64,000 bases of DNA from Sipunculus nudus (lineage: Eukaryota; Annelida; Sipuncula; Golfingiida; Sipunculidae), in contig CM049319.1 in assembly GCA_026874595.1 (NCBI GenBank), forward strand, positions 57,792,917 to 57,856,916, read 5' to 3'. The position numbers and the translations under genes were made by a program. This document shows, in pieces, positions 10,381 to 58,823 of this stretch. Under the pieces are notes generated by a model. The model ran no database searches, was not told the origin of the DNA, and saw only the letters and a program-made list of their open reading frames with translations. The stretch's first letter is position 1. Each line of letters begins with the position of its first letter.

Positions 10381-11869
10381 CCGTATTTATTCTAATTTGG
10401 CTACCACTTAAAAATAATTAATTTTCTCAGAGGTCGAGATAATGGAGGATATTTGAAAATTATCTTCCTGCAGAATTTGCGGTGGTCAAGATTTTAGAGG
10501 CAAGCGCTTTGATAACCTTCCGTAGAGACGCAGAGCCGCTCTGACACTCGAGCGGTCATATGAATTGAGTGATAATTTGGTCGTTTATCAGTTTGTTTTG
10601 TTAGCTTAACAGTATTTCCTACAAATGGGCTTCCAACCATCACATGAATTACTGTGGTTGGCTTCATATTCGCGGGACTGAAATTTCGCGATTTCTCCAT
10701 TTTTAATGTTTCGCGAGGGTTTCATTTCGCGATCTCACCAGAACCTATGTAAAATCTTTGGTAAAGCCATACCTGTTTGTATTAAAAATGAGAATAAGTC
10801 ATGAGTTTGTAATATTCTACTCATATAACGATGGGCCCAGACACACAGCATAGGTAGTTTAGTTCAAATTTAAGGGAATGTTTTCCCGATACCTGCATGG
10901 ATGTAATTTATTATAAAATTTCTCACTGTTCTAACCTATTCACGTACAAGAATTGGTTACACTAAACAAAAGGACATACTCAGTTGGCCAATTATTACCA
11001 AGGGTTTCATTTTCGCGATTATTTAGCATTCACGAATATCGTGAAATCAAAACCCTCGCGAACAAAAAGGCAAACACAGTATACGGAGTCCGCAAATGAT
11101 TAATCAAACTGAGCTCAATCACTTCACAAAATGATCACTACTTGGGGTAAAGGTACAATCACTTAACATAGACTGCAACTCCTGTAACTTCTAGTTGTTT
11201 CAAGTTAACCCTCAAGGCGGCGATATCGGGGGGCCTAAAAGGGACAAGCAGCTGCACGGAAGTTGGAAGAAGACTGCCTATTATCAGATAACTTTTATTT
11301 GCATAATACGTAATAATTATAGGAAAGTAAAGGCGTGTTAAAATATATACGACCGGAAATGGTACTAGCTCACGTGCCCTCGATCGGGCCCAGTTTGCTA
11401 CGCACGGTCACCCATCCAAAAACTAACCGGGGTCGTTTAAACTTAACTAAGGTGACAGATTCATCTGTGTCACAGCTGTTCCACCACACGTGCTTTCCTG
11501 GAAGTTGTAAATATTATTGCTAAAGATCCCATGTGAATTACACACTAGGCATGTGCGTACCAGGAATGGTACACAAGTTTGCTTCGTCACGGACACCCTT
11601 TTGGATCTTGAACATTTTATCATGTTTATATATAAAATGAAAAATGCACCTTTGTATCTTCAAAAATGTTATTGGAAACAAGTTTGATGTGGATGCTCAG
11701 TGTAATAAGAGTCTAGTCAGATACAAACTTTTTTTGCCTGTGAGAGACGGAGGCATTTCACCTTAACATCGTTGGCAGTAGTGAAATTAGTCATTTTAGA
11801 AATTATGCTTTCAAAATATTTTTTGGGGTCAAGAAATAAAGAGGGATCGCCAAATTGAAATAAATACGG
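10381..11869. mobile_element. 1.49-kb TIR element with TA target duplication
   Basis: The left end is CCGTATTTATTCTAATTTGG and the inverse of the right end is CCGTATTTATTTCAATTTGG, each continuing in GC. They are flanked by TA at 10379-10380 and 11870-11871. The start CCGTATT and the TAAT spacing recall the 6978-9016 element, suggesting related families. The interior is interrupted by the MITE at 10652-11079. A plus-strand frame of 62 codons (11335-11523) and short minus frames show no transposase motif. Confidence 0.68.
10652..11079. mobile_element. 428-bp MITE, copy 1 (TA target, CTGTGGTTG/CAAACACAG ends)
   Basis: The element is bounded by TA on both sides (10650-10651 and 11080-11081), with ends CTGTGGTTGGC and GGCAAACACAG. 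Just inside are CpG-rich palindromic words: 'tttcgcga', 'cgcgagggtttcat', and near the right end 'cgaatatcgtgaaatcaaaaccctcgcgaac'. A second copy at 56282-56719 has the same ends and a verifiable empty site, which confirms the boundaries. There is no coding capacity. Confidence 0.85.
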
Positions 11870-20638: not shown

Positions 20639-22641
20639 TTAGCTCAGCTGACTGAAAGTCATCTGAGCTATAGCGATCACTCTTTGTCCGTCTGTCTGTC
20701 TGTCCGTCCGTTAACCAGGCACAAATCGTAACCGCTGGACCTAGAACCTTGTAACTTGGGATTCTGAGAGGTCCATAAAAAATCTCCTTGGAAACCAGAA
20801 ATTAGGTCTCTGTTACCCATATCCTTCGAGCTATGTGGCCCCAAAGTACCCCCCAGAAAAGTCAAAAATTTCATACAAAAACTTCAATATCTCATTAACA
20901 ACTTGACTGATGGTCATGATTTTTGGCATACATATTGATCATGAAATGTTACATCATTTCCTGCAGACTGGTGGCGCCACCTGTATTTTTCGATTTTTTA
21001 CGAATTTTTTTCTCTATTTTTGAGACCTTTAAAAATGTGAACATCTGTTAACAAGGCACAAATCATAAAGACTGGACTTAGAATCTTAATTCTTGACACA
21101 CTGAGAGGTCCATGAAAAATCTCCTTGGAAACCAGAAATTAGGTCTTTGTTACCCATATCCTTTGAGCTATGGGGCCCCAAAGTACCCCCCAGAATAGTA
21201 AAAAATTTCATACAAAAACTTCAATATCTCAATAACTACATCACTGATGGTCTTCATTTTTGGCATACATATTGATCATGAGATGTTCGATCAGTTCCTG
21301 CAGACTGGTGGCGCCACCTGTACTGTTTGATTTTTTACGATTTTTTCCTCTATTTTTGAGACCTTTGAGGATGCTGTCATCTGTTAGCGTGGCACAAATC
21401 GTAATGACTGGACCTAGAATCTTCATTTTCGACACACTGAGAGACCTATGAAAAGTCTCCATGGAAACCAGAAATTAGGTCTCTGTTACCCATATCCTTC
21501 GAGCTGTGGGGCCCAAAATTACCCCCCAGAATAGTCAAAAATTTCATACAAAAACTTCAATATCTCATTAGTACATCACTGATGGTCATGATTTTCGACA
21601 TACATATTGATCATGAGATGTTTCATCAGTTTGTGCAGACTGGTGGCGCCACCTGTATTTTTCAATGTTCACGAATTGTTTTCTCCATTTTTGAGACCTT
21701 TAAGGATGTAGTTATCTGTCAACAGGGTACAAATCGTAACGACTGGACCTAGAATCTTCATTCTTGACACACAGGGAGACCCATGATAAGTCTCCATGTA
21801 AACCTGAAATTTGGTCTCTGTTACCCATATCCTTTGAGCTATGGCACTCCAAAGTACAGCTCAGAATAATGGAAAATTTGATACAAAAGCTAAAGTATAT
21901 GAACAACTAATGCAGAGATAACCATAATTGTTTGCATGGATATTGATCATGGAGTGTTTCATAAGTTTCTGCAGACTGGTGGCACCACCTGTATTTGTTC
22001 GTTTTTTTTTACGAAATTTTTCTGTATTTTTGAGACCTTTAAAGATATGAACATCTGTTAACAGGGCACAAATCATAAAAACTGGACCAAGAATCTTCAT
22101 TCTTGACTCACAGGGAGACCCATGAAAAGTCTCCATGGAAACTTGAAATTAGGTCTCTGTTACCCATATTCTTTAAGCTGTATGGGTCAAAAATACCCCC
22201 CCCCCCCAGAATAATGGAAAATTTGATACAAAAACTGCAGTATTTCAATAACTACAACACTGATGGTCATGATTTTCGGCATACATATTGATCATGAGCT
22301 GTTCCATCAGTTTCTGCAGACTGGGTGTGCCACCTCTATTTTTTTCCAAATTTTTACGAATTTTTTTCTTTTTTTTGAGACCTTTAAAGATGTGGTTATC
22401 TGTCAACAGGGTACAAATCGCAACAACTGGACCTAGAATCTTCATTCTTGTCATGCAAGGAGGCCCATGAAAGGTGCCTGTGGAAACTTGAAATTAGGTC
22501 TCTGTTACCCATATCCTTCAAGCTATAGGACTCCGAAGTATCCCTCAGAATAATGGACAATTTGATACAAAAACTGAAGTATCTGAACAACTAATGCAGA
22601 GATCACCATGATTTTTTGCATGGATATTGACCATTAAGTGT
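20639..22641 (+). mobile_element. Family-3 variant with ~336-bp tandem units (left part; resumes at ~25161)
   Basis: The 5' hairpin AGCTCAGCTGACTGAAAGTC...CTGAGCT is followed by a CTGTCTGTCCGTCCGTT pyrimidine tract. About six tandem units of ~336 bp follow, each with 'gcacaaatcgtaa..actgg', 'gaaaccagaaattaggtctctgttacccatatcctt' and 'ctgcagactggtggcgccacctgt' (exact palindrome at 20970, 21307 and 21642; mutated at 21977 and 22321). It is broken at 22641 by a family-3 element and resumes as 'agtttctgcagactggtggagccacctgtattttt' (25165-25199). No coding capacity is visible. Confidence 0.72.
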
Positions 22642-25160
22642 TTTTAGCTCAGCTGACTATAAGTCATCTGAGCTATAGTCGTGGTCCATTGTCCGTCGTC
22701 CGTCCGTCTGTCCGTCCGTCCGTCCGTCCATCCGTAGATGTGGCACGTTTTGTAACCGTAAGACCTAGGAATCCAAAATCTGGCATAATGTTAGATGTCC
22801 CCAAGATCTCTTACCAAGCCGAAAACTCGGTCTTTTCGACTTCGTTCCTTTGAGAAATTAAGGAAAAACCTCAATTTTTTATTAAAAACCTATTTTCACA
22901 CTTCAGGACTGCCTAATATCAAAACCACTGATCTGTTTTTCCTCATATTTACCATAAATATTCCTCTATATAGTTCCTATGTACATTCAAGAAATTATGT
23001 CTGTATTATATAATTTAAAAAAGTTATGGACCCAAACATAATGCATTTTGTAAAAAATCAGGAAAGATGTTTGATCACTTAACACAAAACATGTTAAAGC
23101 TATGGACCTTTTTTCCAGTAATATAACTTTAATTAATCAAAATTAAATTGTATACCCAAAATTTGATGAAAATCTTTTAAATTTTTAAAAATATTAATAA
23201 AAATAAAAAATTGGTACCTTAAATTTTGCCCAACTTTGACCATGGCACGTTTTTTTCCTGTGAGTACTGTGGATTTAATTTTCACAGCATGTTTTTGTTA
23301 CCTTTTCAACTGTTAACACCAAAAATTTGAAACCAGTTGATCAAAAAATGTAGATTTTATTCAAGTTTTCAAGCACCATGTAACATTGTTTACATCAAGC
23401 TAGTGTTATGCAGTTTGCAAGAGCTCAGCTCCCCAGCTTCAGCTCTTAGTTCCTTAAATTCGGCATACAGCTAGATGTCTCCAAAATCCCCTACCATGCC
23501 AAGAATTTGGTCACTAGGACTTAATACCTTCAAGATATTAATGAAAAACTTCATTTTTCCATTAAAAACCCATTGTTACACTTCAAGACTGCCTAATATC
23601 AAAACCACTGATCTGACTTTAATCATAAATAATATACATATTTTTCATTCTCTATGCACATGCCAGAATGATGTCAGGATTGCGTAATTGTTTTAAGTTA
23701 TGGGCCCAAACATAATGCACTTTGTAAAAAATCAAGAAATATATTTACTCCCTTAACAAGGGGATTGCTGAAGCTAGAGATTTTTTGTCAGGGATGTAAC
23801 ATTATTTAATCAAGATTCAATTGAATACCCAAAATTAGTTATGAATTTTTCAAATTTTATTAGTTATTAGTATAAATGTAAAATTAATAACTTAAATTTT
23901 GCCCAACTTTGACCATGGCACATTTGTTTCCTGTGAGCACTGTTGATATAATTTTCATATCATGCACACATAAGGATTTCAGCTTTTAAGTTTAGAAAGC
24001 TGAAAGAAATTGGCCAAAAATTGTAGCTTTTATAAATGTTTTTATGAGACCCTGTCAGACTTTGGCTCTCTCCAGCCCCTCTTGAGTCACCTGTATGTTG
24101 ACCTTGTTGAACTTTCAGCAAATTATGCATGCTTGAGGCGAGGCATACAGGGGAATCCAGGCAGCTTATGGCCAGCCACAGTTGATCCAGGTGTCCAACC
24201 CAACTCATCTAGTAGTTTTAACCAACTACATAACAATAAACAATAAATTAATAAATTTTTATTGGTTTTTAATAAAAAATTAAAGAAAAATAGAAAAGGA
24301 ATTTGTTAGTTTATAATAACAGGAAATTAACTTGCAGTTACTGATGATATAAGAATCTTGTATCGATGGATAGAATGTCACGTATTCCAAATAACACCAT
24401 GCAGTCACCTATGGTATTTTTCAGTTCAATTTTAATGATAAAGAAGTAAATCATATCATTCATTACTAATCATTAGGGATCATATGATGGAAATTAATGA
24501 TAGACAAAGATGCAGTTGATAATATTAATCTAGATTCCTACTGTGTCTAGTGTGTACATTGATGTGAAATTAGTCCAAAATGAATTTATTACAGTTATTT
24601 TTTAATATAAATAAAAGCCATAAAACCAGGTACTTATGATCATTATTTAAATGTGTGAATTTTGTATATTCTGGATTCTCAACATCATTGTTTGGTGAAA
24701 ACTGAATAAATACCAGTCATGGTGCGAATACTTTGTAATTGTATTTAAATACGAATATGATTATGTACTCCATTATAAAATTTCTTGCATAAAGAATGGG
24801 AATTCAGGTAAAAATGAAAGTATATGAATACCAGTGCAAATACTCTCAAAATGTATTCATGAATGCATTCATGAATATATTCTTTAATATTATTTTGATA
24901 ATCATTTCAGTTATATTTCATTTTAAAAAAATCATATGATTCTCTTATTATTTTAAAAAAAATAATATTTGGGACAATATTTGTAATTTTTTTAAATTAA
25001 TAGTTAAACCCTTATATTATATATTCTGCTTATAAGTTATATGGCCAAGTCAAAATCTGTGTGACAATAGCACTCCATTTGTTAATAAAATAAATGAAAT
25101 CAATCCTCTTCCCTGTCTCCAAAGGTACTATCAAAATCATACATAAGCTAAACAACAACA
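22642..25160 (+). mobile_element. Family-3 Helentron-like element f, lacking its terminator
   Basis: The 5' hairpin AGCTCAGCTGACTATAAG...TCATCTGAGCT and the CCGTCCGT tract (22690-22740) mark a new start inside the previous element. The body is collinear with element d (48167-50784) over almost its whole length, including an internal half-repeat at ~23425 ('agagctcagctccccagcttcagctct'). It stops at 'aaacaacaaca' (25160), about 115 bp before the terminator seen in d. The host unit then resumes, so this copy lost its 3' end. Confidence 0.75.
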
Positions 25161-25199
25161 TTATTAGTTTCTGCAGACTGGTGGAGCCACCTGTATTTT

Positions 25200-25400
25200 T
25201 GTATCCGCCAAAACGAAGTTTTGCGGATACTATGTTTTTGACCGAGTTCCTCCGCCGCGGCGACGTTCGTTTCCAGAGAGCTCCTTGGAGACTAATGGAC
25301 CGATTTTTCCCAAACTTACACCTATTATCGGGTCACATGTGAACTGGTGCCTAACCAATTTGCATTGACCTCTGACCTTTCCTCTCTATCCAGTGTCCAT
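25200..25400 (+). mobile_element. Family-1 element, copy B (5' fragment only)
   Basis: The 5' hairpin GTATCCGCCAAAAC/GTTTTGCGGATAC directly follows a T-run of the host repeat ('cctgtattttt'). About 200 bp are recognisable ('gggtcacatgtgaactg', 'tgacctctgacctttcctct'), then similarity is lost. This copy is truncated. Confidence 0.7.
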
Positions 25401-29213: not shown

Positions 29214-29404
29214 GGTTTTAAAATGTCCTAGTCCGAAACTTGCAGGTCAGAAACGTCCATTTTCCTGAAATCATAATGACTAAGGTAGATATACAGGACT
29301 TAGGAGGATCAATATTAAATTTTAAAAATAAACCTCCATTCATACTCCTAAACTTTGCACAGGTTCGCATTAGGCCTGTAGGCCTTGTTATTGGTTATAT
29401 TAAT
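29214..29404. other. Short spacer
   Basis: Unrecognised sequence between a family-1 end and a family-2 start. Confidence 0.5.
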
Positions 29405-30686
29405 TGTATCCCCAGACAAAGTCGGGGGATACTATGTTTTCATACTGGTCCCGCTGCCGCCGCATATAAATCTTGTTGGTGCGATAACTCAAAAAATATT
29501 TCACGGATCTTTACCAAACTTGGTATATTTATAGATATGGGTCAGAGGACAAAGCCTATTTAAAATGAGGTCATGACCTTGACTAGGAGAGTGTCCTTGA
29601 CCTTGAATAGGTCCAATTTTGGGAAAATCACACAAATTCTTAAATATCTCAAGAAATCTTGCATGGATTGTTCAAAATCAAGTTGATGGAAGATCATGGA
29701 TAGGGTTGTCATGTTCCAGAGACTGGTGGTGCCACCTATTATTCGTTACTTGTTTTCGTGCCGTTTAATACTCTAAAATGGCTACTTGACAGTACTGTGA
29801 GCATTATAAGTCAAAAACTAATGGACAGATATCTTTTATATTATGCATATACATAGACATGGGTTATGGGATGATGTTTATTTAAATTAGGGTCATGACC
29901 TTTTCTATGAGACTGGCCTTGACCTTGAATATTGCCATATATGGGAAATTTCACACTAAATCATTAATTTCTCAATAAGGGATGCATGGATTGGTCCAAA
30001 AATCAACTTGACCGAAGATCTTTGATAGTAATGTCATGTACAGGAAACAAGTGGCGCCACCTGTTATTCTTTTACTTGTTTTCGTGCTGTTTAATACCCC
30101 CATCATTGCCACTTAACAGTACTGTGAGCATTTTAAGTCAAAAACTATCAGACAGATTTCTTTCATATTATGCATATACATAGCTATGGGTTTTGGGATG
30201 GTGTTTATTTAAATTTGGGCCATGACCTTTCCTATGAGTGGCCTTGACCTGGAATATGGTGAAAATCACACAAAATCATTATTATCTCAATAAGGGATGC
30301 ATTGATTGGTCCAAAAATCAACTTGACCGAAGATCTTGGATAGTGTTGTCATGTACCGGAAACTGATAGCACCCCCTGTTATTCTTTTACTTGTTTTTGT
30401 GCCGTTAAATACCCCATCATTGCCACTTAATAATACTGTGAGCATTATAAGTCAAAAACTATCAGACAGATTTCTTTCATATTATGCATATACATAGACA
30501 TAGGTTAATGGATGATCATGTATAATGAAATTGGGGTCATGACCTTTTCTATGAGAGTGACCTTTTCTATGAGTGTGGTCTGATATTAATTGTTGCTGAA
30601 GATGGGGGGGCCTATTCTTAAAGGGGGAGTGGGGGATTAATTGTCTGGGGATACTATGGCACCTGCGGTGCCAAGAAATGTCTAGT
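29405..30686 (+). mobile_element. Family-2 Helentron-like element, copy 1 (complete)
   Basis: The 5' terminus GTATCCCCAGACA opens an imperfect hairpin closing with GGGGGATAC. At the 3' side TGTCTGGGGATAC is its exact 13-bp inverse, followed by the hairpin GGCACC-tgc-GGTGCC and 'aagaaatgtCTAGT' joined to T. The interior has ~350-bp repeated modules ('ggggtcatgacctt', 'ccttgaccttgaat', 'caagtggcgccacctgttattc') and a G-rich stretch just before the end. There is no Rep/helicase coding; it is non-autonomous. Confidence 0.82.
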
Positions 30687-46825: not shown

Positions 46826-48166
46826 TCTTTGCTGGTTTTATTAGCTCAGCTGACTATAAGTCATCTGAGCTATAGTCATGGTCAATTGTCCGTCGTCCGT
46901 CTGTCCGTCTGTCGTGCCGTCCGTCCGTCCGTAGATGTGGCACGTTTTGAAACCGTAAGACCTAGGAATCCAAAATTCAGCATAATGTTAGATGTCCCCA
47001 AGATCTCCTACCAAGCCGAAAACTGGGTCTTTGCGACTTCGTTCCTTTGAGAAATTAAGGAAAAACCTCAATTTTTTATTAAAATCCTATTTTCACACTT
47101 CAGGACTGCCTTATATCAAAACCACTCATCTGTTTTTCCTCATATTTACCATAAATATTCCTCTATATAGTTCCTATGTACATGCCAGAAATTAAGTCTG
47201 TAAAGTATAAATTCTTTAAGTTATGGGCCCAAACATAATGGACTTTGTAAAAAATCAGGAAAAACAATAACTCACTTAACATGAAAAATTTTGAAACAAG
47301 AGTCTATTTTCTCAAGTATATAACTATGTTTAATTAAGATTCAATTGTTTACCCAAAATTAGATCTGAATTTTGTAAATTTTTAAAGTTATTAGCATAAA
47401 AAAAATCAGTACCTTAAATTTTGCCCAACTTTGACCATGGCACGTTTTTTTCCTGTAAGCACCATTGATTTAATTTTCACAGCATGTAAACAAAAATATT
47501 TAGTTTGTCTAAATCTGAAATTTGAAAATAAAAGCTTGAAAATTAAGCTAGTTATTGATTTTTTAGCTCAGCTGACTATAAGTCATCTGAGCTATAGTCG
47601 TGGTCCTTTGTCCGTCGTCCGGCCGTCCGTCCGTTAACAGGGCACGTTTTAAAACCGTTGGACCTATGAATCCAAAATTCTGCATACCATTAGATGTCCC
47701 CAAATTCTCCTACCATACCGAAAATTGGGTCATTAGAACTTTGTTCCTTTGAGATATTAAGGAAAAACCTCCATTTTCCATAAAAAAGCAATTTTTACAC
47801 TTCAAGTCTAACTAATATCAAAACCACTGATCTGTTTTTGATCATATTTAGTATTCATATTCTTCCATACATTTTCTGTGCACATACCAAAAATTAGGTC
47901 AGTATTGGGTATTATTTTGAAGTTTATAGGCCCAAATATAATGCAGTTTTTAGCTCAGCTGACTATAAGTCATCTGAGCTATAGTCGTGGTCCATTGTCC
48001 GTCGTCCATCCGTCTGTCCGTAGATGTGGCACGTTTTGAAACCGTAAGACCTAGGAATCCAAAATTCAGCATAATGTTAGATGTCCCCAAGATCTCCTAC
48101 CAAGCTGAAAACTGGGTCTTTGCGACTTCGTTCCTTTGAAAAATTAAGGAAAAACCTCAATTTTTT

Positions 48167-50784
48167 AGCTCAGCTGACTATAAGTCATCTGAGCTATAGT
48201 CGTGGTCCATTGTCCGTCGTCCATCCGTCTGTCCGTAGATGTGGCACGTTTTAAAACCGTAAGACCTAGGAATAAAAAATTCGGCATAGTGTTAGATGTC
48301 CCCAAGATCTCCTACCAAGCCGAAAACTGGGTCTTTGCGACTTTGTTCCTTTGAGAAATTAAGGAAAAACCTCAATTTTTTATTAAAAACCTATTTTTAC
48401 ACTTCAGGGCTGCCTAATATCAAAACCACTCATCTGTTTTTCTTCATATTTACCATAAATATTCCTCTATATAGTTCCTATGTAAATGCCTGAAATTATG
48501 TCTGTATTATATAATTTAAGAAAGTTATGGGCCAGAATATAATGCAGTTTGTAAAAAATCAGGAAAGATATTTGATCACTTAACACAAAACTTGTTAAAG
48601 CTATGGACTTTTTTTCAAGTAATATAACTTTAATTAATCAAAATTAAATTGTATACCCAAAATAAGATCAAAATCTTTTAAATTTTTTAAAATATTAACA
48701 AAAATAAAAAATTGGTACCTTAAATTTTGCCTAACTTTGACCATGGCACGTTTTTTTTCCTGTAAGTACTGTGGATTTAATTTTCTCAGCATGTTTTTGT
48801 TAGCATTTTGTCTGTTAACACCAAAAATGTGAAACCAGTTGATCAAAAACTGTAGATTTTATTCAAGTTTTCAAGCACCATGTAACATATTGTTTACATC
48901 AGGCTAGTGTTATGCAGTTTGCAAGAGCTCAGCTCCCCAGGTTAAGCTCTCAGTTCCTAAAATTTGGCATACAATTAGATGTCTCCAAAATTCCCTTCCA
49001 TGCCAAGAATTTGGTCACTAGGACTTGATACCTTAAAGTAAAAATAAACTTTCATTTTTCAATTAAAAACCCATTGTTACACTTCAATACTGCCTAATAT
49101 CAAAACCACTGATCTGAGTTTAATCATATATAATATACATGTTTTTCTATACATTCTCTGTGCACTTGCCAGAAATGATGTCAGTATTGCGTAGTTGTTT
49201 TAAGTTATGGGCCCAAACATAATGCACTTTGTAAAAAATCAAGAAATATATTTACTCCCTTGACAAGGGGCTTGCTGAAGCTAGAGATTTTTTGTCAGGG
49301 ATGTAACATTATTTAATCAAGATTCAATTGAATACCCAAAATCAGTTCTGAATTTTTTAAATTTTATAAGTTATTAGTATAAATATAAAATTAGTACCTT
49401 AAATTTTGCCCAAATTTGACCATTTTATTTTTGTTTCATGTGAGCTCTGTTTATATAATTTTCATATCATGCACACATAAGGATTTCAGCTTTTTAGTTT
49501 AGAAAGCTGAAAGAAATTGGCCAAAAATTGTAGCTTTTATTAATGTTTTTATGAGACCATGTCAGACCTTGGCTCTCTCCAGCCACTCTTGAGTCACCTG
49601 TATATTGACCTTGTTGAACATTCAGCAAATTATGCACGCTTGAGGCGAGGTATATACTGGGGCAGCAAGGCAGCTTATGGCCAGCCACAGTTGATCCAGG
49701 TGTCCAACCCAACTCATCTAGTAGTTTTAACTAACAACATAACAATAAACAATAAATTAATCAATTTTTATTGTTTTTTAATAACAAATTAAAGAAAAAT
49801 AGAAAAGGAATTTGTTAGTTTATAATAATAGGGAATTAACTTGCAGTTACTGATGATATAAGAATCTTGTATTGATGGATAGAATGTCATATATTCCAAA
49901 TAACACCATGCAGTCACCTATGGCATTTTTCAGTTCAATTTTAAAAATAAAAAAGTAAATCATATTATTCATTACTAATCATTAGGGATCATATGAAGGA
50001 AATTAATGATAGACAAAGATGCAGTTGATAATATTAATCTAGATTCCTACTGTGTCTAGTGTGTACATTGATGTGAAATTAGTCCAAAATAAATATATCA
50101 CATTTATTTTTTTTTAATATAAATAAAAGCCATAAAACAAGGTACTTATGATCATTATTTAAATGTGTGAATTTTGTACATTCTGGATTCTCAACACCAT
50201 TGTTTGGTGAAAACTGAATAAATACCAGACATGGTGGGAATACTTTGCAATTGTATTTAAATACAAATATGAATATGTACTCCATTATAAAATTTCTTGC
50301 ATAAAGAATGGGAATTCAGGTAAAAATGAAAGTATATGAATACCAGTGCAAATACTTTCCATATGTATTCATGAATGCATTCATGAATATATTCTTTAAT
50401 TTTATTTTAATAATCATTTAATTTATATTTCATTTTAAAAATCATACGATTCTCTTATTATTTTTAATAAAAATTATATCTGGGACAATATTTGTAATTT
50501 TTTTAATAAATAGTTAAACTCTTATATTATATGTTCTGCTTATAAGTTATATGGCCAAGTCAAAATCTGTGTGACAATAGTACTCCATTTGTTAATAAAA
50601 TAAATGAAATCAATTCTCTTCTCTGTCTCCAATTGTACTATCAAAATCATACATAAGCTAAACAACAACAACTCATAATACAGCTTATACTTATTACCAC
50701 ACAAAACCAGCATGTGCCTCATTTCTAAATCATATTTTTTTATCATATATAAAAGCTGAGCGCCGTGACCCATAGGTCCCTTGT
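48167..50784 (+). mobile_element. Nest element d, innermost, complete family-3 copy (2.6 kb)
   Basis: The 5' hairpin AGCTCAGCTGACTATAAG/TCATCTGAGCT is followed by the CCATCCGTCTGTCCG tract. The body is collinear with f (22642-25160), and the 3' end is AGCTGAGCgccgtGACCCATAGGTCCCTTGT joined to T (50754-50784). GCTCAGCT at the start pairs with AGCTGAGC at the end as the asymmetric TIR. It is internally two-part: the second half restarts near 48927 with an 'agagctcagctccccagg' relic. It has no coding capacity. Confidence 0.82.
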
Positions 50785-52120
50785 TATTAAAATCCTATTT
50801 TCACACTTCAGGACTGCCTGATATCAAAACCACTCATCTGTTTTTTCTCAAATTTTCCATAAACATTCCTCTTTATAGTTCCTATGTACATGCCAGAAAT
50901 TAAGTCTGTAAAGTATAAATTCTTTAAGTTATGGGCCCAAACATAATGGACTTTGTAAAAAATCAAGAAAAATAATAACTCACTTAACGTGAAAAATTTT
51001 GAAACTAGAGTCTATTTCCTCAAGTACATAACTATGTTTAATTAAAATTCAATTGTTTACCCAAAATTAGATCTGAATTTTGTAAATATTTTAAGTTATT
51101 AGCATAAAAAAAAAATCAGTACCTTAAATTTTGCCCAACTTTGACCATGGCACGTTTTTTTTCCTGTAAGAACCATTGATTTAATTTTCACAGCATGTAA
51201 ACATAAATATTTAGTTTAACTAAATCTGAAATTGGAAAATAAAAGCTTGAAAATTAAGCTGGTTATTGATTTTTTTTCTGTAGTCACTTGCTTTGATTAC
51301 AGATGCAGGGTCCCACTCCAGGTCACTGGAAGTCAGCTATGCCAGGCTTTCTGATTTGTTACAGTCACTGGGGGAGATCCCCTGCTGTGACAGGTGTACA
51401 GTTATTCTTATATCACCACCCCAATCATCCCCCCCCCCCCCCCACAAACCCAACCCACCAAGTGTTATGCAGTAATTGTTATTGTTTTCACTGTATCTAC
51501 TTAATTGTAATGCTGTTTCCACTCCGATATGCAAAAACTTTCCTTGAAAAAATAATTCAAGGTGTAATCTAGAAGATGCAATGTTGTGTAATGTAGCATT
51601 TTTAAAGAAATCAATTTTCTTTTAAATGATTTTAACAAATATAAATGAACCCATCAGTATGCTTAAATTATTATAAAATATGAAGCACATTATAGATAAA
51701 TAAAGACACAATTAAAAATTGTGAAATCTAAATCAAGTGTTATTTTTAGATATTTATTGTTTTGCAGATTTAAAAGAGATATATTTTTGTGGTAAAAAAT
51801 AAATAAACATTTGTATGCATGATGTGGTGTTATCTGACAAGATTGAGATTTATGATGATGCAATCGAGAATTATGAATCAACTTTTATATTCAGATATAT
51901 ATGTTAAATTGGAAATGTATAAAAAATATAAACTTAAATTAGAAAATAATTGATGTGAAAAAAAAAGAGGATTTAATACAAACATTTGTTCATTATTTTC
52001 CTGCCTCAGCAGAATTTGAGATCAGGCTTTGTTTGCCCTGTTTTATGTTGTTAATTAGCTATATTTCAACTGTATACATTTCATAAAAAAAAATATATAT
52101 TTAATAATATATATTATACC

Positions 52121-52393
52121 GCAAAAAAAATAGATTATATTGAACAAATGTGTAAACTACTGAAATGTCAACAGTTAATCGAAAAACCAACTAATGATCA
52201 TGGTAATAGTACAGATCATTTGTTCACAAACTGCTCACATGCTTTAGTTTCAACATTAGGAAACACATGGTCAGGTCACAAAATATTTTTTGCAACAATT
52301 TCTTGCTCATCAATACAAACCAATCATATAAACCAACCATGGCCTTTATTACCTCTTCCTCTTACACTTTATCTCTATTTGATATTATTTTAG
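52121..52393 (+). pseudogene. Decayed APE-type endonuclease C-terminal fragment (Helentron EN or LINE), copy 1
   Basis: The frame reads ...IDYIEQMCKLLKC, QQLIEKPTND, STDHLFTN and SGHKIFFAT. This follows the order of the C-terminal part of the APE-like endonuclease of CR1/L2-type non-LTR retrotransposons, where a QLI..PTR block, a LD..(F/L)TN block and an SDH motif occur in that order. Autonomous Helentrons carry such a domain fused to the C-terminus of Rep-helicase. The fragment lies ~120 bp upstream of a Helentron 3' terminator (52416-52448), the expected place. The SDH Asp is replaced by Gly, and the upstream catalytic part is absent, so it cannot be an active enzyme. The alternative is a captured LINE piece. 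I assigned it by eye only. Confidence 0.55.
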
Positions 52394-52415
52394 ATTTTTA
52401 CCTTCAAGGTTAAAG

Positions 52416-52448
52416 CAGCTGAGCACAGTGACCCATAGGTCCCTTTTT
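52416..52448 (+). mobile_element. Damaged family-3 3' terminator inside c
   Basis: CAGCTGAGC, then 'acagt', then GACCCATAGGTC and CCTTTTT. The ATIR part and stem are present, but the end reads CTTTTT instead of CTTGTT. The copy in a (58306-58338) shares the CTTTTT change. Both elements continue past this point. Confidence 0.75.
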
Positions 52449-54085
52449 CAAGGTCACAGCAGCAATTATGCTAAAATGATATATGTGCAATGTGCAATAA
52501 CTCAAAAACAATTTGTGGTACAGTCACCAAACCTACAGTTTAGATGCATCTTATCAAGGGCTAGGCCAAGTAAGGGATGCATGGATTGATCCAAAAATCA
52601 ACTTGACTGAAGATCTTGGATAGTATTGTCATGTACCGGAAACTGGTGGCACCACCTGTTATTCTTTGACTTGTTTTTGTGCCGTTTAATACCCCCATCA
52701 CTGCCACTTAAAAGTACTGTGAGCATTATAAGTCAAAAACAAATGGACAGATTTCTTTCATATTATGCATATACATAGACATGGGTTATGAGATGATGTT
52801 TATATAAATTGGGGTCATGACCTTTCCTATATGAGTGGCCTTGACCTTGAATATTGCCATATATGATGAAAATTACACAAAATCATTAATATCTCAATAA
52901 GGGATGCATGGATTGGTCCAAAAATCAACTTGACCAAAGATTTGGTTAGTGTTGTCAAGAACCAGAAACTGGTAGCGCCACCTGTTATTCTTTTACTTGT
53001 TTTCCTGCCATTGCATTATAAGTCAAAAACTAATATTATAAACATACTAGCTGATAAACCCGGTATACCGGGCTTTTCACCGCGGTTTGCGAGATATATT
53101 TACTGAGATATTGAATGTTGGCTCATTTTTTATTATAAAAATTAAAAGAAAATATAGATTTTTAGTGGGATACTCTCGGAATACAATATTTACAAATAAT
53201 TTTTTACTGTTATTTTGTGGCGCTGTGCTCGTGGCAAAAATCATATCCTGGTATGTTTTCCTTAAAGACCTGGTCAGTGATGGTTTACATTCCGAACCGG
53301 AATGAGACGCGGAGGCATACAGTGTTTCTTTGATATTTGACTGGTTTCTATCGTTCGACGTTTAAAGAATAGGTTGATGTGTGGAACACATTAGGTTAAT
53401 TAAATGTACGTTGCAAGGAAACTGTTCTTGAAGAAGGAAACAGAAATATACATACATCGTAAGTAGCAGAAGCGGACCCAGCGAGACTCCATGCAGTGGG
53501 TCCGTATCCCATTTTCAGACCCCCGACACCACCCCAGCCCTGTTCCTGAATTCGGGACCTTGAATTAGGTTTTGTCATTTACCCTCCTGGGTTGAACTCT
53601 CCATTTCATAAAGCGAGAAACGTGTGTTTTTCTCTTTTACTGACCACGCACATGGGTCAAATCCCTCATTGAAAGCAAGCGTTATTCATATGAACAATAG
53701 TCCTTAGTGTTAGAGGTTAAGTGAATACGATGCACGCATTCCGGTGATTGCCGAAGGCAGTTCGGCTGTGCTCAGTAAAAAAACGGAAAAATCACTAAAA
53801 ATTATATGTATATTAAAAATTATTTATTTTCATATCGCCTATGTCACTGCGGGGATAATAACCTTTAAAATGATGTATGGCACAATATTGTACACAATTG
53901 TTTTAGAGAACACCACAAACAAACGTGAACTGAATTCCTTTTATAAGTATTAGATTATGCATATAATGGGAGTGGTCCGATATTAATTGTTGCTGAAGAT
54001 GGGGGGGGAGGCCTTTTCTTAAAGGGGGGGGGGGGATTAATTGTCTGGGGATACTATGGCATCTGCGGTGCCAAGAAATATCTAG
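52449..54085 (+). mobile_element. Family-2 element, 3' part, interrupted
   Basis: Family-2 phrases ('gggatgcatggattg', 'tggcaccacctgttattcttt', 'ggggtcatgacctttcct') run to 53039. After the insertion the sequence picks up at 53954 and ends with TGTCTGGGGATAC, GGCATC-tgc-GGTGCC and 'aagaaatatCTAGT' (54042-54085). No 5' GTATC hairpin is present. About 17 bp of the expected body are missing at the insertion point. Confidence 0.7.
53040..53953. mobile_element. 914-bp unclassified insertion (CTAGCTG...CCCGGTATACCGGG)
   Basis: It interrupts the family-2 segment. Possible 5-bp target duplication ATTAT (53035-53039 and 53954-53958). Near the left end lies 'actagctgataaa' and the perfect palindrome CCCGGTATACCGGG (53059-53072); 'ttgccgaaggcagttcggc' occurs toward the right. 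Repeats starting 'actagctg' with a GC-rich palindrome are familiar to me from other invertebrates, but I cannot name the class. A 72-codon plus frame (53087-53305) has no motif. Confidence 0.5.
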
Positions 54086-54604
54086 TTTTCTTTTAAATTC
54101 AGTTTAAACGTTTGTGATTTAAAAATAATAAAATATATGTGTATGCATAATATGACTCAATATGAGCTACACTCTGGATATATAATGATTGCAACTTAGA
54201 ATTCTAATATTTTAACTTATAATTTCAGTTTTTTATTACAAATTTATAAAACTTGTAAATAAAAAAATGAATCAGATAAAAACTATTAATGGAAATAGTA
54301 GTTATGCTAAAAAAATGGGCTTATTTATAAACTTAAATGCATTATTCCCTTGAAAGTGAAATAAAGGTATTAGTCCATTCTGTCCTCTTGCCTGTCCATC
54401 TGTAAATTTTTCATATGCTTCACAGTATCTCAAAACTTTTACTGTTTTCCTTCATGACAGTCTTGTCAGAGTATTAGTTTGCAATCATATATTTAGAACT
54501 TTACTATAACCAAGTAGGAGGGCCCCTTTCCTCTTAGCTTCTCACATGCTTATATAAATGAAAAACATTACAATAGAATATTTTGCATTTGCAATTTCAA
54601 ACTT

Positions 54605-54636
54605 CAGCTGAGCGCCGTGACCCATGGGTCCCTTGT
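54605..54636 (+). mobile_element. Intact family-3 3' terminator closing c
   Basis: CAGCTGAGC (inverse of the family-3 5' GCTCAGCTG), 'gccgt', the palindrome GACCCATGGGTC, then CCTTGT joined to T. The next bases are the resumed body of b, which fixes this as the end of the inserted unit. Confidence 0.8.
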
Positions 54637-56101
54637 TTAAAAATCAGGAAATAGATTTGCTCACTTAACATGAGAATTGCTGAAGCTGAAGACTTTTTTT
54701 CAGGAATATAACTTTATTTAATCAAGATTCAATTTTTTGCCCAAAATTAGATCTGAATTTTGCAAATTTTTCAAGTTATTAGCATAAATAAAAAATTAAT
54801 ACCTTAAATTTTGTCCAACTTTGGCAGTGGCACATTTTTTCCCTGTAAGCACTGTTGATTTAATTTTCACAGCATATACACATAAGGGTTTAATCTTTTA
54901 AAATCTGAAATTTCAAAGAAATTGTTTGAAAAGAGTAGCTTTTATTCAAGTTTTCATACACCATGTCAAGTGTTGTTTATATCTGGCCCACCTAGTAGTA
55001 CAGCCTTCACTTGCATTATGTAACCCACCCCAGGCAGCTTGCCTTGACCCAGCTTGGCCACAACTATCAGGCTTCTCCTCTGCCCTGCACTCAACCCCCC
55101 CCCCCCCAGCTGGTGCATAAACTAGATGAATGTTATAATTTTCTGTATTTTATTTTATTCTTGGACATGCTACATTTTAGATTTTGTATTGTACCACCAG
55201 GGTTACAATGATTAAAGTGCACATTTAATTGTGTCCACAAAGTGATGTATTGCTATGAAAGTATGGATGTTCATCAGATAAGTAATGCTTTACTTCAGAA
55301 GAGTAAAACTTCACCAGGTGTGAAATTGACTATTAATTCCAGTTATTAATTACAGCTGAGATTGTAATTAGCATAATGATATTTTTTGTCCCACATTCAA
55401 CCAACAGTGTGTATACTTTATTTGAAAAGATGTTTTTATTTTATCAAATTTACTGAATCTTTTATTTTATTTCGGTGAATAAAATTAAGCTTGTCCTGAA
55501 AACTCCAATGTGCAAAACTTTTTAATAGGAATTCAAGGAATAATTTTGTAGATGCCATGTTGTGGCATTATTTTCTTTAACATTCAGTTTAAACATTTGA
55601 TTTAAAAATAATAAAATATATGTGTATGCATAATATGACCCAATGTGAGCTACAATCACAATATATAATGATTGCAACTTAGAATTCTAATATTTAAACT
55701 TATATTTTCACTTTTATATTACAAATTTATAACACTTGTAAATAAAAAAAATGAATCAGATAAAAACTATTAATGAAAAAAGTGGATATGCTAAAAAAAT
55801 AAGCTTATATATAAACTTAAATGCATTATTCCTTTGAAAGTGAAATGAAGGTATTAGTCCATTCTGTCCACTTGCTTGTCCATCTGAAAATTTTTCATAT
55901 GCATCCGGTATCTCAAAACTTTTACTGTTTTTCTTCATGACAGTCTTGTCAGAGTATTAGTTTGCAATCATATATTGAGAACTTTACTATAACCAAGTAG
56001 GAGGGCCCTTCCCTTTTAGCTTCTCATATGCTTATATAAATATAAAACATTACAATAGAATATTTTTCATATTTTGCATTTGCAAAAATTTCAAACTTTT
56101 G

Positions 56102-56123
56102 TTGTGACCCATGGGTCCTTTGT
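56102..56123 (+). mobile_element. Damaged family-3 3' terminator inside b
   Basis: 'ttgtGACCCATGGGTCCTTTGT': the stem palindrome is perfect, but the preceding CAGCTGAGC is lost and one C is missing before the terminal TTTGT. Sequence downstream (from 56124) matches the 3' part of d/f (24662 onward) rather than the body of a. Confidence 0.7.
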
Positions 56124-56281
56124 TTATATTCTGGATTCTCAACATCATTGTTTGGCTAAAACTGAATAAATACCAGACATGGTGCAAATATTTTGCAAAT
56201 GTATATGAATATGAATATGAATATGTACTCCATTATAAAATTTCTTGCATTAGAATGGGAATTCAGGTAAAAATGAAAGTA

Positions 56282-56719
56282 CTGTGGTTGGCTTCATATT
56301 GGCGAGGCTGAAATTTCGCGATTTTTCCATTTTTAATGTTTTGCGAGGGTTTCATTTTCGCGATCTCACAAGAACCTACTAGTATATCAAATCTTTGGCA
56401 AAACCATATACCTTTGTGTTTTATAAAATGAGAATAGGTCATGCGTTTGTGACATTTTCTTATATAATGATGGGCCAGTGCACACAGCATAGGTGGTTTA
56501 GTTCAAATTTAAGGTTTAAATTTCCCTATACCTGCAAGGATGTAATTTATTAAAAAAATTCTCTCTGTTCTAACCTATTAACATACAAGTATTGATTACA
56601 CTAAATAAGAAGAACATTCTCAATTGGCCGATTATTCCCGAGGGTTTCATTTTCGCGATTATTTCCAATTCGCGAATATCGCGAAATTAAAACCCTCGCG
56701 AACAAAAAGGCAACCACAG
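56282..56719. mobile_element. 438-bp MITE, copy 2 (TA target) with empty site in window
   Basis: Ends CTGTGGTTGGC and GGCAACCACAG, flanked by TA at 56280-56281 and 56720-56721. The uninterrupted host reads 'aatgaaagtatatgaatacc' at 24817-24836 and 50323-50342. The interrupted one reads 'aatgaaagTA' + element + 'TAtttgaatacc'. This is direct proof of TA duplication. It is the same family as 10652-11079. Confidence 0.93.
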
Positions 56720-57132
56720 TATTTGAATACCAGTGCAAATACTTTCAAAATGTATTCATAAATGCATATATTCTATAATATTATTTTAATAATTAGTTCA
56801 GTTATATTTTATTAAAAAAATCATATGATTCTCTTATTATTTTTAATAAAATTATATTGGCACAATATTTGTTATTAAATTTTAATAAATAGTTCAACTC
56901 TTTTATTATATTTGCTGCATATAAGTTATATGGCCAAGTCAAAATCTGTGTGACAATAGCACTCCATTGGTTAATAAAATAAATGAAATCAATCCTCTTC
57001 CCTGTCTCCAAAAATACTATCAAAATCATACATAAGCTAAACACCAACAACTCATAATAAAGCTTATATTTATTACCACACAAAACCAGCATATGCCTCT
57101 TTCCCAAATCATATTTTTTTTATCATATATAA

Positions 57133-57164
57133 CAGCTGAGCGCCGTGACCCATGGGTCCCTTGT
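57133..57164 (+). mobile_element. Intact family-3 3' terminator closing b
   Basis: CAGCTGAGC, 'gccgt', GACCCATGGGTC, CCTTGT joined to T, followed directly by the resumed body of a ('tttctgtagtcac'). Confidence 0.8.
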
Positions 57165-57166
57165 TT

Positions 57167-58823
57167 TCTGTAGTCACTTGCTTTGATTACAGATGCTGGG
57201 TCCCACTCCAGATCACTGGAAGTCAGCTATGCCAGGCTTTCTGATTTGTTACAGTCACTGGTGGAGATCCCCTGCTGTGACAGGTGTACAGTTATTCTTA
57301 TATCACCACCCCAATCATCCCCCCCCCCCCCACAAACCCAACCCACCAAGTGTTATGCAGTAATTGTTATTGTTATCACTGTATCTCCTTAATTGTAATG
57401 CTGTTTCCACTCCGATATGCAAAAACTTTCCTTGGAAAAAATAATTCAAGGTGTAATCCAGAAGATGCAATGTTGTGTAATGTAGCATTCTTAAAGAAAT
57501 CAATTTTCTTTTAAATGATTTTAACAAATATAAATGAACCCATCAGTATGCTTAAATTATTATAAAATATGAAGCACATTATGGATAAATAAAGACACAA
57601 TTAAAAATTGTGAAACATAAATCAAGTATTATATTTAGATATTTATTGTTTTGCAGATTTAAAAGATATATTTTTGTGGTAAAAAATAAATAAACATTTG
57701 TATGCATGATGTGGTGTTATCTGACAAGATTGAGATTTATGATGATGCAATTGAGAATTATGAATCAACTTTTATATTCAGATATATATGTTAAATTGGA
57801 AATGTATAGAAATATAACCTTAAATTAGAAAATAATTGATGTGATAAAAAAATCAGGATTTAATACAAACATCTGTTCATTATTTTCCTGCCTCAGCAGA
57901 ATTTGAGATCAGGCTTTGTTTGCCCTGTTTTATGTTTTTATTTAGCTATATTTCAACTGTATACATTTCATAAAAAAATACATATATATTTAATAATATA
58001 TATTATACCGCAAAAAAAATAGATTCAATTGAACAAATGTGTAAACTACTGAAATGTCAACAGTTAATCGAAAAACCAACTAATGATCATGGTAATAGTA
58101 CAGATCATTTGTTCACAAACTGCTCACATGCTTTAGTTTCAACATTAGGAAACACATGGTCAGGTCACAAAATATTTTTTGCAACAATTTCTTGCTCATC
58201 AATACAAACCAATCATATAAACCAACCATGGCCTTTATTACCTCATCCTCTTACACTTTATCTCTATTTGATATTATTTTAGATTTTTACCTTCAAGGTT
58301 AACGTCAGCTGAGCACAGTGACCCATTGGTCCCTTTTTCAAGGTCACAGCAGCAATTATGCTAAAATGATATATGTGCAATGTGCAATAACTCAAAAACA
58401 ATTTGTGGTACAGTCACCAAACCTACAGTTTAGATGCATCTTATCAAGGGCTAGGCCAAGTAAGGGATGCATGGATTGATCCAAAAATCAACTTGACTGA
58501 AGATCTTGGATAGTATTGTCATGTACCGGAAACTGGTGGCACCACCTGTTATTCTTTGACTTGTTTTTGTGCCGTTTAATACCCCCATCACTGCCACTTA
58601 AAAGTACTGTGAGCATTATAAGTCAAAAACAAATAGACAGATTTCTTTCATATTATGCATATACATAGACATGGGTTATGAGATGATGTTTATATAAATT
58701 GGGGTCATGACCTTTCCTATATGAGTGGCCTTGACCTTGAATATTGCCATATATGATGAAAATTACACAAAATCATTAATATCTCCGAGTCAATAAGGGA
58801 TGCATGGATTGGTCCAAAAATCA
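57167..58823 (+). repeat. 1.65-kb duplicated segment, copy in a
   Basis: Second copy of 51277-52927; see that entry. Its right edge (58823, 'ccaaaaatca') is abrupt: unique sequence 'gttgagatttagaaataat' follows, whereas the other copy goes on in family-2 sequence. Confidence 0.85.
58010..58282 (+). pseudogene. Decayed APE-type endonuclease fragment, copy 2
   Basis: Same fragment as at 52121-52393, with the same QQLIEKPTND, STDHLFTN and SGHKIFFAT blocks. From its first Met it differs by one residue near the C-terminus (PLPL there, PHPL here). The Gly in place of the motif Asp is shared, so inactivation preceded the duplication. Confidence 0.55.

What the first reader, a model, noticed from the sequence alone, without database searches (positions are those of the whole stretch)
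46842..58823. Four-deep nest of Helentron-like elements whose insertion order is proven by empty sites inside the window
Seen directly: four 5' hairpins open in sequence (46842, 47564, 47951, 48167), and each interrupted body resumes later in reverse order. d closes at 50784 and c resumes with 'tattaaaatcc' (empty site at 47070-47105). c closes at 54636 and b resumes with 'ttaaaaatcagg' (empty site at 47237-47260). b closes at 57164 and a resumes with 'tttctgtagtc' (empty site at 51261-51290). All insertions are in T-runs, giving a relative chronology a, then b, then c, then d.
Basis: seen in the sequence. Interest (0 to 1): 0.8.

Follow-up and report, generated by a model that had tools for sequence, protein, structure and literature searches.

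The report
Nested Helentron transposons spawning hybrid elements
Four jumping-DNA elements really are nested one inside another here, in an order the sequence shows, and elsewhere in the same genome such nests have fused into hybrid elements that spread on their own.

Summary
The nest is real. Four identical 5' hairpins open in sequence and the interrupted bodies resume in reverse order. Each join also exists uninterrupted in independent copies: b-in-a, 40 of 40 scored hits (39 outside c itself); c-in-b, 40 of 41 rows; d-in-c, 11 of 15 loci. The three inner closing points sit at a terminator whose core occurs exactly 7,479 times (d's has one mismatch). Order a, b, c, d holds. The elements have HINE structure (non-autonomous Helentrons) and at least 12,234 exact 5' ends.

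Two corrections. The a/c family normally ends at 52446 (c) and 58336 (a), not 54636/58823. Element c runs through that mutated end and a second family's 3' end to a terminator at 54635: a nest-derived chimera. The 487 bp of a past 58336 duplicate c's interior (478/479).

Elsewhere a d-type/a-c fusion at the same site became mobile: three loci, 98.8-99.1% identical over about 4.25 kb, different flanks. Maize Helitrons offer a published precedent (PMC3288121).

Unexpected: neighbouring copies 10-60 kb apart share strand, 46 of 50 versus 32 expected.

The parts
46841..47562 (+). Element a, left part: 5' hairpin, GTCC microsatellite, body
   Evidence: exact 5' end; 95% to c 50781-51275
57164..58336 (+). 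Element a, right part up to the a/c-family 3' end (last G of CCCTTG lost)
   Evidence: 97.4% to c; 14 of 15 family loci end at the equivalent point
58337..58823 (+). Sequence beyond a's 3' end that duplicates c 52447-52927; not part of the a/c family element
   Evidence: 478/479 aligned bases identical, 6 gap columns; only a and c span this junction at 99-100%
47563..47949 (+). Element b, left part
   Evidence: exact 5' end; 8 of 8 b-type loci continuous across the join
54636..57163 (+). Element b, right part, with terminator at 57163; contains bypassed internal 3' end near 56125 and a d-type tail
47950..48164 (+). Element c, left part
   Evidence: exact 5' end
50784..54635 (+). Element c, right part: a/c body to 52446, family-3 interior and 3' end to about 54085, b-type tail with terminator used at 54635
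48165..50783 (+). Element d, innermost, uninterrupted; terminator at 50783
   Evidence: 93.9% to 22644-25163
47070..47105 (+). Empty site in a equivalent to the d insertion site in c
47237..47260 (+). Empty site in a equivalent to the c insertion site in b
51261..51290 (+). Empty site in c equivalent to the b insertion site in a
56277..56722 (+). Later insertion inside b: short element with CTGTGGTTG/CAACCACAG ends, apparently flanked by TA
   Evidence: 85% to 10647-11082; uninterrupted relatives d and e; ends read
22644..25160 (+). Second copy of the d type outside the nest, lacking its 3' end
29404..30685 (+). Family 3 element (315-bp repeats), source type of c's middle part

Best explanation
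This is a same-strand nest of non-autonomous Helentrons (HINEs). Each element starts at a 5' hairpin and normally stops at a 3' end CAGCTGAGCGCCGTGACCCATGGGTCCCTTG, and was placed within a run of T with no duplicated target. Shown: a was entered by b, b by c, c by d, at sites that are uninterrupted in other copies. Shown: c is one insertion unit that carries three consecutive 3' ends and was joined to b only at the last. Inferred: because a rolling-circle copy starts at one 5' end and stops at a 3' end, an element nested in the same orientation in another can run past a weak or mutated own end to its host's end; the product is a hybrid with the inner 5' end and the outer 3' end. Shown elsewhere in the genome: such hybrids exist as multi-copy, cleanly inserted elements (d-type fused to a/c at the same site as in this window; b-short fused to a d-type tail). 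Inferred: nesting followed by end bypass is a recurrent source of new families here.
For: Joins. Terminators: exact core 7,479 times, backwards control 0, 98 of 100 listed followed by TT. 5' ends: 12,234 exact, control 0. a/c family end: 14 of 15 loci end at 52446-52448 equivalent, each with a different right flank; most show CCCTTGTT, while a and c have lost the G. c's extension: of the first 40 rows, a and c span the end at 99-100%, six others at 81-93%, 32 stop at or shortly after it. Hybrid 1: L012, L015, L016 each have one 5' end, 2.58 kb of d type (91.6-92.0%), the d terminator partly deleted, then a/c to its 3' end; pairwise 98.8-99.1% over about 4.25 kb, different flanks; L020 shows the same junction but was not extended. 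Hybrid 2: 6 of 8 b-type loci run past the internal end, 2 of 8 end there, with the end intact in L032 and L033 and degenerate in L031 and L034. Hybrid 3: family 3 with b-type on both sides in 4 of 7 loci. L025, L026, L027 and L030 carry the a/c-family 3 junction and stop at the family-3 3' end. Published: 3' bypass by Helraiser about 11.7% of events, more without the hairpin (PMC4778049, passages).
Against: The transposition was not observed; end bypass is inferred from anatomy. a and c are not independent: their flank past the 3' end is 99.8% alike while the bodies are 97.2% alike, so a patch by gene conversion or break repair has to be added. L025, L026, L027 and L030 have the a/c end with its G intact where shown (L025, L030) yet are fused, so mutation of that base is not needed for bypass. 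The 3' palindrome does not fold better than shuffles (z +0.67). The autonomous Helentron examined shares none of the tested termini.
Confidence: 0.85

Rival explanations
1. The repeated 5' ends come from tandem duplication or rolling-circle concatemers, not from sequential insertions.
For: Two 5' ends 215 bp apart look like a tandem repeat, and tandem Helitrons are described (PMC5876387 and PMC5148889, passages). Two-headed units exist: L003 443-3266.
Against: Each body resumes exactly at the base where it stopped, behind a terminator, and the joins are uninterrupted in many loci. Concatemers would not give reverse-order resumption.
Confidence: 0.04
2. c was never one insertion: an a/c element entered a pre-existing family 3 inside b-type DNA, and the left parts of those were later deleted.
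For: Nests of family 3 in b-type DNA exist (4 of 7 loci), and insertions into such nests happen.
Against: The deletion would have had to stop exactly at c's 5' end and at the c site in b, which is an intact T-run insertion with no loss to b.
Confidence: 0.08
3. a's end at 58823 is a true element end: a is itself a read-through copy that stopped without a terminator, and c descends from it.
For: a and c alone share the junction at 99-100% and the lost terminal G.
Against: High identity covers about the last 790 bp only; upstream a and c are no closer to each other than to other family members, and no shared derived site was found left of the b site. The last 380 bp are conserved in the whole family, so the boundary is blurred.
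Confidence: 0.25

Closest known systems
HINE / DINE-1 (non-autonomous Helentrons), PMC4067079 (passages)
   Same: Sub-terminal inverted repeats, 5' hairpin, microsatellite near the 5' end, palindrome near the 3' end, insertion in T-rich sites with variable T number, boundaries defined by paralogous empty sites.
   Different: Different sequence; here the same family is nested in itself four deep on one strand and forms hybrids with other families.
Cg_HINE elements of Crassostrea gigas, PMC7492417 (passages)
   Same: Left and right modules with 4-nt microsatellite and central satellite-like repeats in families 2 and 3 of this window; insertion in T-runs without target duplication; modular relationships between families.
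   Different: No nesting was mentioned in the passages seen ('nested' occurs 0 times in the main text). Here nesting with end bypass supplies a mechanism for module exchange.
Multi-terminus maize Helitrons, PMC3288121 (passages)
   Same: The authors propose that nested Helitrons transposed from the inner 5' end to an outer 3' end, giving elements with several 3' ends and mutated inner ends. This is the same idea.
   Different: Canonical Helitrons with CTAG ends; the path was hypothetical. Here uninterrupted parents and multi-copy hybrids are seen for Helentron-type elements.
Helraiser 3' bypass, PMC4778049 (passages)
   Same: Experimental read-through past the 3' end to a downstream terminator.
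   Different: A bat Helitron in human cells; it captures host DNA rather than nested relatives.

Membership tests
HINE (non-autonomous Helentron) | Sub-terminal inverted repeats at both ends | tested here: met
   GCTCAGCTG at the 5' end and CAGCTGAGC at the 3' end, seen in the sequences printed
HINE (non-autonomous Helentron) | 5' inverted repeat able to form a hairpin | tested here: met
   47950-47990 folds at -10.6 kcal/mol, z -5.4, 0 of 200 shuffles as good
[quoted passage not shown]
   GACCCATGGGTC is present, but folding is no better than shuffles (z +0.67; 148 of 200 as good)
HINE (non-autonomous Helentron) | Microsatellite near the 5' end | tested here: met
   GTCC arrays 46888-46932 and 22691-22735
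HINE (non-autonomous Helentron) | Insertion in T-rich sites without target duplication | tested here: met
   Joins; contexts; 98 of 100 listed 3' ends followed by TT. No systematic search for duplications was made.
HINE (non-autonomous Helentron) | Autonomous Helentron (Rep, helicase, endonuclease) present in the genome | tested here: met
   143 matches to PF14214; one 2,235-aa frame, of which 2,063 aa were scanned, has DUF6570, OTU, Helitron_like_N, PIF1 and Exo_endo_phos
HINE (non-autonomous Helentron) | Autonomous partner shares the same termini | tested here: inconclusive
   Two loci of 13.8-13.9 kb show no end of families 1-3 within 9 mismatches, but their mutual similarity runs to the fetched edges, so element ends may lie outside
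Canonical Helitron (Helitron1) | 5' TC, 3' CTRR, insertion between A and T | tested here: not met
   5' TTAGCT, 3' CCCTTG, insertion in T-runs; definition from PMC4067079 passages

The most novel reading that the evidence does not exclude
HINE insertion is strand-coherent over tens of kilobases: neighbouring copies, and to a lesser degree copies of a second HINE family, lie on the same strand, beyond what nesting explains. The boldest reading is that Helentron insertion follows the direction of the replication fork (ssDNA on one template strand), as for bacterial IS200/IS605, so that old insertions map fork polarity along an animal chromosome. Evidence: 46 of 50 adjacent pairs 10-60 kb apart on C1 0-6.65 Mb (32.0 expected; 0 of 20,000 permutations reached it), 23 of 27 without the first 1.2 Mb (14.3; p 0.0002), 12 of 15 in the separate stretch 6.7-20.1 Mb (7.4; p 0.016), nothing beyond 60-200 kb. 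Against: adding family 2 in 6.7-20.1 Mb gives 19 of 29 (14.3; p 0.062); family 2 alone shows no trend beyond 30 kb; the cross-family nearest-neighbour count is 27 of 39 (p 0.024), or 23 of 35 without the first 1.2 Mb (p 0.09). Only the start of one contig could be sampled. Gene direction, selection or local duplication are not excluded.
Probability: 0.2. Interest if true: 0.8.

Novelty: new member of a known kind. Interest (0 to 1): 0.5.

Why it matters
Nested transposons give a relative clock, but here they also show a route by which new transposon families arise: a nested element on the same strand skips its own stop signal and uses that of its host. In this genome parents, nest and hybrid offspring are all present, so the published read-through idea for Helitrons can be tested quantitatively for Helentrons. 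If the strand coherence holds genome-wide, it would offer a fossil record of a directional process such as replication.

Tried and rejected
A first whole-genome DNA search with a 60-nt 5' end returned nothing because the tool skips very common words; exact pattern searches replaced it. The idea that all double 5' ends 220-260 bp apart are simple nests was dropped: L003 443-3266 is a two-headed unit with a clean host join, while L001 and L002 show no closing at that site and were not resolved further. The exact six-T form of the d-site junction occurs only 21 times, although 3 of the 100 listed 5' contexts show a shorter-T form, so the size of this hot spot was not measured. Target supply as a cause of the one-strand pattern was checked and not supported: outside the HINEs the window has 91 T-runs and 129 A-runs of five or more on the + strand. 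Self-insertion among 99 usable 3' flanks: 13 matched family-1 bodies (9 sense, 4 antisense), against 5 in a reversed control, so only part is signal. Linking an autonomous Helentron by its ends failed. Species was not identified. Paper searches for print precedents; they cover one open-access library only.
Full report
What was checked. The window lies in a 1.43-Gb animal-like genome (G000, contig C14). The species was not identified. Five exact copies of a 37-nt 5' end occur in the window, four of them in the nest, and at least 12,234 in the genome, with 0 for the reversed pattern. The 3' core GTGACCCATGGGTCCCTTG occurs 7,479 times with a non-G base 16 places later, control 0; 98 of the 100 listed are followed by TT.

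The nest. Window self-comparison and join alignments show d in c, c in b and b in a. Independent support: the b site in a is uninterrupted in 40 of 40 scored hits of 558 candidates, 95-100% identical, one of them being c in this window. The c site in b is uninterrupted in 40 of 41 rows (40 scored of 2,294 candidates); all 8 fetched loci agree. The d site in c is uninterrupted in 11 of 15 fetched a/c loci. Insertions elsewhere have different flanks on both sides and T-runs at the ends. The order a, b, c, d follows.

Correction for a. Of 15 a/c loci, 14 end at the point equivalent to 52446-52448 and one stops earlier at a foreign insertion. So a's family 3' end is at 58336. The next 487 bp match c's interior at 478/479 aligned bases with 6 gap columns, while the a and c bodies are 97.2% identical. 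Differences are sparse only over about the last 790 bp, and a and c share no derived site left of the b site. The last 380 bp of the element are conserved in all copies, so the left limit of the similar tract is uncertain. A gene-conversion or break-repair patch from c into a is the simplest reading, but a shared read-through origin is not excluded.

Correction for c. c is bounded by its 5' end and by the terminator at 54635, with b intact on both sides, so it was inserted as a unit. Inside, it carries the a/c end at 52446 (with the terminal G lost), a 3' end of a second repeat-bearing family near 54085 (family 3), and the b-type tail with the end that was used. A search across the a/c end gave two hits spanning it at 99-100%, a and c themselves, six at 81-93%, and 32 of the first 40 rows that stop at or shortly after the end. 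A search across the family 3/b-type junction gave many spanning hits (40 scored of 1,125); in 4 of 7 fetched loci b-type DNA lies on both sides of family 3. So c's right half has the structure expected if an a/c element sat in family 3 that sat in a b-type element.

Hybrids as mobile elements. Four of 15 a/c loci carry a d-type tail fused at the d site. Three of these were extended (L012, L015, L016): each has a single d-type 5' end, 2.58 kb of d type, a partly deleted d terminator and then a/c up to its 3' end; they are 98.8-99.1% identical over about 4.25 kb and have different flanks. The fourth (L020) was not extended. Likewise 6 of 8 b-type loci run through an internal 3' end near 56125 into a d-type tail, and 2 of 8 end there; in the two that end there the terminator is canonical or nearly so, in two of the six that run through it is degenerate. 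L025, L026, L027 and L030 are a/c-family 3 fusions that end at the family 3 terminus. L006 holds an independent cluster: a b-type element closes on the same a-tail T-run as in this window, and a second element sits 81 bp further on, but its left flank is not the a body, so it does not independently show the b-in-a order.

Mechanism. Shown: nesting, precise ends, hybrids with an inner 5' end and an outer 3' end, in several copies. Inferred: rolling-circle copying that starts at one 5' end and bypasses a 3' end. The bypass itself is experimentally known for Helraiser (PMC4778049, passages), and the nest-to-hybrid path was proposed for maize Helitrons (PMC3288121, passages). I therefore do not call the mechanism new; the Helentron/HINE case with parents and offspring in one genome is a new member of a known kind.

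Family. Structure agrees with HINEs as described in PMC4067079 and PMC7492417 (passages). The 3' palindrome is present but does not fold better than shuffles. The genome has Helentron-type proteins with endonuclease, but shared termini with families 1-3 were not found in the two loci examined, whose ends may lie outside what was fetched.

Strand coherence. Every family-1, -2 and -3 end found in the window lies on the + strand (family 1: 6 and 5 ends; family 2: 4 and 3; family 3: 2 and 3; the single minus hit is a palindromic echo of a plus one), although + strand T-runs are fewer than A-runs outside the elements (91 against 129). On C1, clusters at least 10 kb apart and neighbours within 60 kb agree in strand more often than permutations allow: 46 of 50 (32.0 expected; 4 mixed clusters dropped) in 0-6.65 Mb, and 12 of 15 (7.4) in 6.7-20.1 Mb; there is no excess at 60-200 kb. 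Weaker or contrary results: 19 of 29 when family 2 is added in 6.7-20.1 Mb (p 0.062), no trend for family 2 alone beyond 30 kb, and cross-family nearest neighbours 27 of 39 (p 0.024), 23 of 35 without the first 1.2 Mb (p 0.09). An earlier coarser test, thinned to 30 kb, gave p 0.027. Lists were limited to the first 100 places of one contig. IS200/IS605 are a bacterial precedent for replication-directed orientation (PMC5371812, passages). My searches found no paper on this for Helitrons (one library, listings only, so not proof of absence).

Noticed in passing
G000 contig C1, first 20 Mb: HINE copies 10-60 kb apart tend to share strand (46 of 50; 12 of 15 in a separate stretch), and the first 1.17 Mb is almost all minus strand.
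   Followed up: partly
window 58337-58823 and 52447-52927: Nearly identical flanks (478/479) beside element bodies that differ by 2.8%; may be a gene-conversion or break-repair patch.
   Followed up: partly
L012, L015, L016 (C11, C8, C1): Young 4.25-kb hybrid of d type and a/c type, 98.8-99.1% identical, with different flanks.
   Followed up: yes
L003 443-3266 (reverse complement of C1:448700-456200): Two-headed unit: 238 bp of an outer element followed by an inner element, inserted antisense in a family body.
   Followed up: partly
window 18498, 25199, 35529, 45381 (5' ends): Second HINE family with 278-280-bp repeats, 2,349 exact 5' ends in the genome.
   Followed up: partly
window 56277-56722 and 10647-11082: Short element with inverted ends and apparent TA target duplication, inside b and elsewhere.
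   Followed up: no
window 20639-22640 and 25160-25200: Another hairpin-bearing element with 335-bp repeats, interrupted by the d-type copy at 22644, whose 3' end is missing.
   Followed up: no
L051-L054 (C11 and C7): Autonomous Helentron-type locus, 99.2% identical between two contigs over 10.4 kb, with tandem repeats of about 69 bp upstream.
   Followed up: partly
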